Below, piece after piece: positions 22,213 to 23,406 of a DNA stretch of 64,000 nucleotides. Every line of letters begins with the position of its first letter. The stretch's first letter is position 1. Below the pieces are notes generated by a model. It was not told where the DNA came from, did no database searches, and saw only the letters and a program-made list of their open reading frames with translations. The translations under genes were made by a program, and so were the position numbers. Origin of the DNA: Desulfobulbus sp. Tol-SR (GTDB lineage: Bacteria > Desulfobacterota > Desulfobulbia > Desulfobulbales > Desulfocapsaceae); contig JROS01000084.1 of NCBI GenBank assembly GCA_000769715.1, forward strand, positions 1 through 64,000, given 5' to 3'.

Positions 22213-23406
22213 TCAATGCATGCCGCAGCCGCAGGATGAGGGGCCGGGCTTTTTCTGCGTCGCATCCCCTTTGGCCATCGGCGGGATCGGGAAGCCGCTG
22301 TGAAAGGTCACCTGCTCCCCGGAAGCGGATTTCTTTCTGCGAAACCGGGAAGTCAACGGCCTGACCGAGAGGGCGATCAGAACCAATGCCCCGGCATATT
22401 TCAAAGGCTCCGGCACCAGTTCGGCCGCCTCGCCGATCACCGCGGACGGGACGATGCCGAGGACGCGGTAGATGTGATCGACCAGCAGACCGAAGGCCAC
22501 CGTACAGACCGAGAGCATGAGCAGATAGCGCACAGTCCCCCGTTTGCCGAGCATGCCGACGAGAACGGTCAACGAGGTGACGTTGGTGGCCGGGCCGGCA
22601 AGGAGAAAGACCAGGGCGGCGCCGGGGCTGACCCCTTTCAGGATCAGGGCCGCGGCGATCGGGGTCGAGGCGCTGGCACAGATATAGAGCGGGATGCCGA
22701 TCACGAGCATGACGAGCATCGAGGTGATGCCGCCGCCCAGCCAGCGGGCCATGAAATCGTCGGGGATGAGGACGGTGATGACGGCGGCGAGCAGCAGACC
22801 GACGGCGAACCAGCCGACGATATCGCCCCAGACATCGGTTGCGGCGAAGCGCAGACCGGCGGCCAGTTTTTCGCCCGGTCCATGATGCCGGCGGTGGACC
22901 TCCTCGGGGCAGTCGACTCCGTCACAGCAGTTATCGACCGGACAGCTGCGGTCGACCTGCATCGGGCCCAGATCCTTCGGCCGGTGCAGAAAATTTTCGA
23001 CAAACCCTGTCGAAACGGCGGTGATAAAGGCGGCGATCGGCCGGATCACCGTCATGATCGGATCGAGCAGGGCATAGGTGATGAAGATGGAATCGATGCC
23101 CGATTCCGGCGTCGAGATCAGGAAAGCGGAGACCGCCCCCCGGTTCGCTCCCTGCCTTTTGAGGGATGCTGCCGCCGGCAGCACACCACACGATCAGAGC
23201 GGCAGCGGCACCCCGAAAAAGGCAGCCTTGATGACGGAGAGATAGCGTCCCCGGCCGAGATGATTGGCGACGGTGGCGGCATTGAGACTGACTTTGACCA
23301 GGCCCGCCACCACGATGCCGAACAGGATATAGATAGAGGAATCGAGCAGGATATCCCGGGCCGCCGCCGCGATGGCGACGCCAAACTGAATGCTGTCTTG
23401 AAACAT
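22213..23406 (-). CDS. SO_0444-like/DUF318 metal-efflux permease, candidate selenoprotein (in-frame UGA, Sec71)
   Basis: ORFs 23194-23406 and 22213-23184 are the same frame separated by one TGA at 23194-23196; sequence ...GVPLPL(U)SCGVLPAAASLKRQG where homologues carry CSCG. Confidence 0.75.
23167..23183 (-). promoter_or_regulatory. Candidate bacterial SECIS hairpin
   Basis: TGCTGCC-GGC-GGCAGCA begins 11 nt after UGA; loop begins with GG. Confidence 0.6.

What the first reader, a model, noticed from the sequence alone, without database searches (positions are those of the whole stretch)
22213..23406. Candidate selenoprotein: metal-efflux permease with UGA replacing the first Cys of CSCG
One in-frame TGA (23194-23196) is the only interruption of a full-length permease, exactly at a motif Cys (PLPL-U-SCGVLP). 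A 7-bp hairpin with GGC loop starts 11 nt after UGA, satisfying the bacterial SECIS layout (G in the first loop positions, loop about 18 nt from UGA). Annotators would call this two fragments.
Basis: partly seen in the sequence, partly recalled or inferred. Interest (0 to 1): 0.8.

Follow-up and report, generated by a model that had tools for sequence, protein, structure and literature searches.

The report
Selenocysteine-containing heavy-metal efflux permease
A sulfate-reducer-type bacterium makes a copper/zinc-type metal exporter whose gene looks broken by a stop codon, but that stop is almost certainly read as selenocysteine at the predicted metal-gripping position; this form of the family is already catalogued, and related exporters turn out to have acquired selenocysteine repeatedly and at different places.

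Summary
Window 22213-23406 (-) is a full-length SO_0444-family Cu/Zn efflux transporter (NF033936, 404 bits, cut-off 300). Its only interruption is an in-frame TGA (23194-23196) at residue 71, in PLPL-U-SCG. The genome has selA, selB, selC and selD, and selD carries its own UGA near its N-terminus. Across 153 sampled relatives that cover the site, residue 71 is always TGA, TGT or TGC. All four other sampled genomes of the genus have TGA. An 8-bp GGC-loop hairpin follows the UGA; the full stem occurs in 23 of 36 Sec forms and 0 of 108 Cys forms, with compensatory changes. An ArsR/SmtB-type metal-sensor gene lies upstream in the same orientation. Pseudogene, assembly error and code reassignment are effectively excluded; protein-level proof is missing. 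The Sec form is not new: a 2026 review lists the SO_0444 transporter as a GenBank-annotated selenoprotein, motif UxC. Beyond the finding: Sec71 has at least four SECIS designs (one clade rejected, p-AU about 1e-36), and other members keep Cys71 but carry UGA in the Cys-rich loop. Sec appears to have been recruited repeatedly, at more than one site, in one metal exporter family.

The parts
22213..23406 (-). SO_0444-family Cu/Zn efflux transporter gene (397 aa with Sec71); stop codon 22213-22215
   Evidence: NF033936, 404.5 bits, cut-off 300; PF03773 ArsP_1
23194..23196 (-). in-frame UGA, residue 71, predicted selenocysteine in PLPL-U-SCG
23166..23184 (-). bacterial SECIS-like hairpin: 8 bp with GGC loop (loop 23174-23176)
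23188..23190 (-). Cys73 of the U-S-C motif
22678..22680 (-). Cys243, invariant, which aligns with residue 71 in the internal repeat
22882..22953 (-). Cys/His-rich loop between the two halves (DRSCPVDNCCDGVDCPEEVHRRHH); in other family members this loop carries the UGA
22213..22233 (-). C-terminal CGCGMH tail and stop
23462..23866 (-). ArsR/SmtB-type metal-sensing repressor with CxC (alpha3N) and D-x-H-x10-H-x2-E (alpha5) motifs, 55 nt upstream of the permease in the same orientation

Best explanation
The gene encodes a selenoprotein form of the SO_0444-family soft-metal exporter. SelB with Sec-tRNA(Sec) is recruited by the hairpin just downstream of the UGA and inserts Sec at residue 71. The full-length permease is two homologous membrane halves. 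Residue 71 and invariant Cys243 occupy equivalent places at the ends of broken helices, and with Cys73 they probably form a soft-metal (Cu(I), Zn, Cd or similar) binding and translocation site. The upstream ArsR/SmtB sensor probably switches the operon on when metal rises. The selenolate would bind soft metals more tightly, or react faster, than a thiolate. Shown here: gene integrity, machinery, Sec/Cys exchange, hairpin conservation, conserved gene pair, internal repeat. Inferred: the actual insertion of Sec, the metal site and the metal specificity.
For: selA/B/C/D are present, and selD has its own in-frame UGA near the N-terminus. Codon 71 is TGA in 29 and TGT/TGC in 107 of 136 loci, and in the Sec forms there it is the only stop; 12 of 17 further loci also have TGA there. 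All five sampled genomes of the genus have TGA. The hairpin has 8 of 8 pairs in 23/36 Sec forms and 0/108 Cys forms, with C-G to U-A (three sequences) and G-C to A-U (one) double changes. The upstream same-strand ArsR is kept in 26 of 28 Sec forms with enough upstream sequence, mostly with both CxC and SmtB-type alpha5 metal motifs. The two halves are homologous (hhalign probability 98%, E 1.6e-13), with residue 71 opposite Cys243. SO_0444 is needed for growth in Zn or Cu stress in Shewanella (PMC3219624), and a family member is induced by Cd and Cu in Nitratiruptor (PMC10092412).
Against: There is no protein evidence (75Se label or mass spectrometry). The metal specificity of this protein is untested. 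The AlphaFold model (pLDDT 83.5, pTM 0.81) has no solved homologue by sequence or fold, so the metal site is inference. Nearly all sampled relatives, Cys forms included, have Sec machinery, so presence of the machinery alone does not discriminate.
Confidence: 0.96

Rival explanations
1. The UGA is a nonsense mutation or an assembly error in a decaying or ordinary Cys-type gene.
For: Gene callers report a fragment; the window is one contig of a draft assembly.
Against: The same TGA sits at the same codon in 36 distinct sequences from many genera and several families, in frames otherwise free of stops up to their C-terminal ends (one exception, L161, has a second TGA in the loop), at 42-81% identity to the window's protein. 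The hairpin is conserved with compensatory changes.
Confidence: 0.02
2. The UGA is a real stop and the 323-aa downstream ORF (22213-23184, GTG start) is the functional protein, or two half-proteins are made.
For: An ORF of 323 aa starts 9 nt after the UGA.
Against: It would lack the first 74 residues, including the first membrane helix and the U/C-S-C motif that Cys homologues keep. The sequence upstream of the UGA is conserved in relatives as well. Nothing in this reading explains Sec/Cys exchange at exactly this codon.
Confidence: 0.01
3. UGA is reassigned or read through as another amino acid (Cys or Trp).
For: None found beyond the in-frame UGA itself.
Against: Sampled homologues never have Trp there. 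The SECIS hairpin and complete sel genes point to Sec. This gene itself ends at a UGA that is not followed by more of the protein.
Confidence: 0.01

Closest known systems
SO_0444 family Cu/Zn efflux transporter, selenoprotein form (NF033936; PMC13188914 table: motif UxC, WP_014809615.1, 'GenBank annotated')
   Same: Same family by curated model; same motif (U-S-C fits UxC); one Sec.
   Different: The window's gene is a further, mis-annotated instance. The review gives no SECIS, taxonomic or multi-site analysis of it in the passages read. UxC could also describe the loop site U-G-C, and the reference protein could not be retrieved.
SO_0444 of Shewanella oneidensis (Cu/Zn tolerance)
   Same: Same family (NF033936 is named after it).
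   Different: Not aligned here. The window's gene follows an ArsR/SmtB-type sensor, whereas SO_0444 is reported in an operon with a ZntR-like regulator.
SaoE (NF040736) of the selenocysteine-assisted organometallic system
   Same: Related permease (162.7 bits).
   Different: Far below the SaoE cut-off of 325.
ArsP (PF03773) organoarsenical permeases
   Same: Same Pfam domain (153 bits).
   Different: A different subfamily; the curated NCBIfam model places the window's protein in SO_0444.

Membership tests
SO_0444 family Cu/Zn efflux transporter (NF033936) | score over the curated cut-off (300 bits) | tested here: met
   404.5 bits, profile positions 3-349 of 351
SO_0444 family Cu/Zn efflux transporter (NF033936) | exports or protects against Cu/Zn | not testable with these tools
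   needs a mutant or transport assay
Bacterial selenoprotein | in-frame UGA aligned to Cys in homologues, conserved as UGA in others | tested here: met
Bacterial selenoprotein | SECIS hairpin just downstream, G in the first two loop positions, specific to Sec forms | tested here: met
Bacterial selenoprotein | selA, selB, selC and selD in the genome | tested here: met
Bacterial selenoprotein | Sec shown in the protein | not testable with these tools
   needs 75Se labelling or mass spectrometry
SaoE (NF040736) | score over the curated cut-off (325 bits) | tested here: not met
   162.7 bits

The most novel reading that the evidence does not exclude
One soft-metal exporter family recruited selenocysteine repeatedly and at different positions, with a new SECIS hairpin each time: at the membrane U-S-C motif (at least four hairpin designs) and at Cys positions of the Cys-rich loop (GG-U-GC in Desulfobacula/Desulfotignum, GCG-U in another lineage), and in one genome possibly at both. 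That would make the family a natural series for asking what Sec does for metal transport.
Probability: 0.75. Interest if true: 0.55.

Novelty: new member of a known kind. Interest (0 to 1): 0.42.

Why it matters
Few transporters are predicted to hold selenocysteine, and the review read here says their precise roles still need work. This family offers closely related Sec and Cys versions of one exporter, beside a conserved metal sensor gene and across many sulfate-reducer relatives, so whether Sec improves soft-metal export can be tested directly. It also shows a widespread annotation error: the N-terminal part with the key motif is cut off in databases.

Tried and rejected
The second TGA hit in this genome (C25, L014) is the stop of the gene upstream of another PF03773-type permease, not Sec. 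The fixed-place hairpin pair count used an offset one base off and was redone. Alignment A4 used wrong coordinates and is not used. Rfam gave no SECIS-type match near the gene. Asking whether only Sec-form genomes have Sec machinery was uninformative: nearly all sampled genomes have it (73 of 80 selB, 76 of 80 tRNA-Sec). No solved homologue was found. Haft and Gwadz 2023 and Haft and Tolstoy 2025 are not in the library. The main texts of deep-Sep and Peng 2016 do not mention this permease.

Full report
Observation. On the minus strand, 23406-22213 encodes one continuous 397-residue protein if the single in-frame TGA at 23194-23196 is read as an amino acid. The protein matches NF033936, SO_0444 family Cu/Zn efflux transporter, over nearly the whole profile at 404.5 bits against a cut-off of 300, and Pfam PF03773. 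The closest proteins in the databases are 321-323 aa fragments beginning just after the UGA, so gene callers do truncate it.

Selenocysteine machinery. The genome has tRNA-Sec (Rfam 69 bits; ARAGORN calls tRNA-SeC, anticodon TCA), selB (349 bits), selA (633 bits) and selD (371 bits), all above curated cut-offs. selD itself holds one in-frame UGA near its N-terminus (VKAAG-U-AAKLGPG; that this is the active-site position is from general knowledge of SelD).

Sec/Cys exchange. In 58 relatives the gene is common. Mapping codon 71 in 136 loci gave 29 TGA, 59 TGT and 48 TGC, nothing else. Seventeen further loci gave 12 more TGA and 5 Cys codons. All four other sampled genomes of the genus have TGA. 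Relatives in the same family include both forms. The Sec forms span 42-81% identity to the window's protein and are otherwise free of internal stops, apart from C-terminal ends and the one gene (L161) with a second, loop UGA. Decay and sequencing error are excluded.

SECIS. After removal of duplicates there are 36 Sec forms and 108 Cys forms. The 8-bp stem GUGCUGCC/GGCAGCAU with GGC loop is complete in 23 of 36 Sec forms and in none of the Cys forms; the inner six pairs are complete in 27 of 36 against 9 of 108. Within the 27, pair 16-28 is C-G in 23 and U-A in 3, and pair 15-29 changes from G-C to A-U once: compensatory changes in a coding region. Of random synonymous versions of the window's sequence 0.8% keep the full stem. 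Most of the other Sec forms have different hairpins: CGCAGC-CGUGUC-GCUGCG or close variants in L059/L060/L063/L069/L148, GCCCGC-AGUU-GCGGGC in L153 and CCCCGC-AGUU-GCGGGG in L158, and UGCCGCA-GGUC-UGCGGCG in L161, each with a G in the first two loop positions. L160 has only a weaker version of the main type.

Tree. On a careful tree of 94 proteins, Sec71 needs at least 8 changes (4 forced by well-supported branches), and one clade of all Sec71 forms is rejected (p-AU about 1e-36). The first, quick tree gave 6 changes. Together with the different hairpins this argues for repeated gain, though the tree alone cannot separate gain from loss and the root is not inferred.

A second place for Sec. 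Eight loci of the Desulfobacula/Desulfotignum clade keep Cys71 but have an in-frame TGA in the Cys-rich loop, GG-U-GC. A Desulfotignum relative (L112) has GGCGC there. Four of the eight have the hairpin CACCUGC-GG(U/C)-GCAGGUG; the other four have weaker or other hairpins. A separate lineage (families f95 and f74: L154-L157, L171-L173) has GCG-U-P; three of its four distinct genes have a 7-bp hairpin, GCCGGGG-GUU-CCCCGGC, that becomes GACGGGG-GUG-CCCCGUC in L173, a compensatory change, while L154 has a weaker 5-bp one. A family member (L174) has DCGCVED instead. One genome (L161) has UGA at both residue 71 and the loop; the loop one is a single case and weaker. I found no report of the loop sites in the papers that could be read.

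Structure and mechanism. The two halves of the protein are homologous (hhalign probability 98%, E 1.6e-13), and residue 71 aligns with invariant Cys243 (PLPL-U against PLYI-C). In the AlphaFold model (pLDDT 83.5, pTM 0.81) both residues sit where a helix is broken, just before helices 72-84 and 244-256. No solved relative exists by sequence or fold. The likely mechanism is a two-fold pseudo-symmetric metal site made of U71, C73 and C243 that passes soft metal ions out, with the Cys/His-rich loop and CGCGMH tail as loading sites. This step is inference.

Regulation. An ArsR/SmtB-type regulator lies 55 nt upstream in the same direction (23462-23866). It is kept upstream and same-strand in 26 of 28 Sec-form and 63 of 94 Cys-form loci that have enough upstream sequence. 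Most have both a CxC motif and D-x-H-x10-H-x2-E, which in known sensors (general knowledge: CadC, SmtB) bind Cd/Pb and Zn. Two family members have experimental links to metals: SO_0444 mutants are impaired in Zn and Cu stress (PMC3219624), and a Nitratiruptor member is induced by Cd and Cu (PMC10092412).

What is known. PMC13188914 (2026) lists 'SO_0444 family Cu/Zn efflux transporter, NF033936, UxC, one Sec, WP_014809615.1' as annotated in GenBank and names it among transporters predicted to hold Sec, whose precise roles require further work. The window's gene is therefore a new, mis-annotated member of a known kind. The repeated, multi-site use of Sec in the family is the part that may be new.

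Noticed in passing
L101, L110, L113, L115, L117, L119, L122, L124 (loop TGA, residue about 155-159): SO_0444-family genes of the Desulfobacula/Desulfotignum clade keep Cys71 but have an in-frame TGA in the Cys-rich loop (GG-U-GC), with SECIS-like hairpins in at least four; the gene is Cys-type in L112.
   Followed up: partly
L154-L157, L171-L174: Another lineage has the UGA at GCG-U-P in the same loop, with a hairpin that shows a compensatory change; L174 is the Cys form.
   Followed up: partly
L161 (G127 C25:114652-116229): One gene with UGA at both residue 71 and the loop: a possible double selenoprotein; single case.
   Followed up: no
window 936-15400: A large CRISPR array (about 60 repeats, 61-nt period, 11.5-15.4 kb) follows what look like type I-E cas genes (cas3, cse1, cas7, cas5, cas6e, cas1 by eye, not family-searched); a BRO/DinD-like ORF (8025-8960) sits between the cas6e-like and cas1-like genes.
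   Followed up: partly
window 15725-17089 (-): Transposase (DDE_Tnp_1/DUF772) beside the CRISPR array.
   Followed up: no
L015 (own genome C50:104689-105633): selD is itself a likely selenoprotein gene (one in-frame UGA near the N-terminus).
   Followed up: partly
L170 (own genome C25:6000-14000): Apparent arsenic-type cluster: CcdA-like membrane protein, ArsC-like protein and PF03773-type permease genes in a row; names by eye.
   Followed up: no
G002, G003, G007, G021, G023, G029, G039, G044, G145, G182: Two tRNA-Sec-family matches above cut-off in one genome; the second is usually weaker (56-62 bits) and could be a second tRNA-Sec or a Sec-like allo-tRNA.
   Followed up: no
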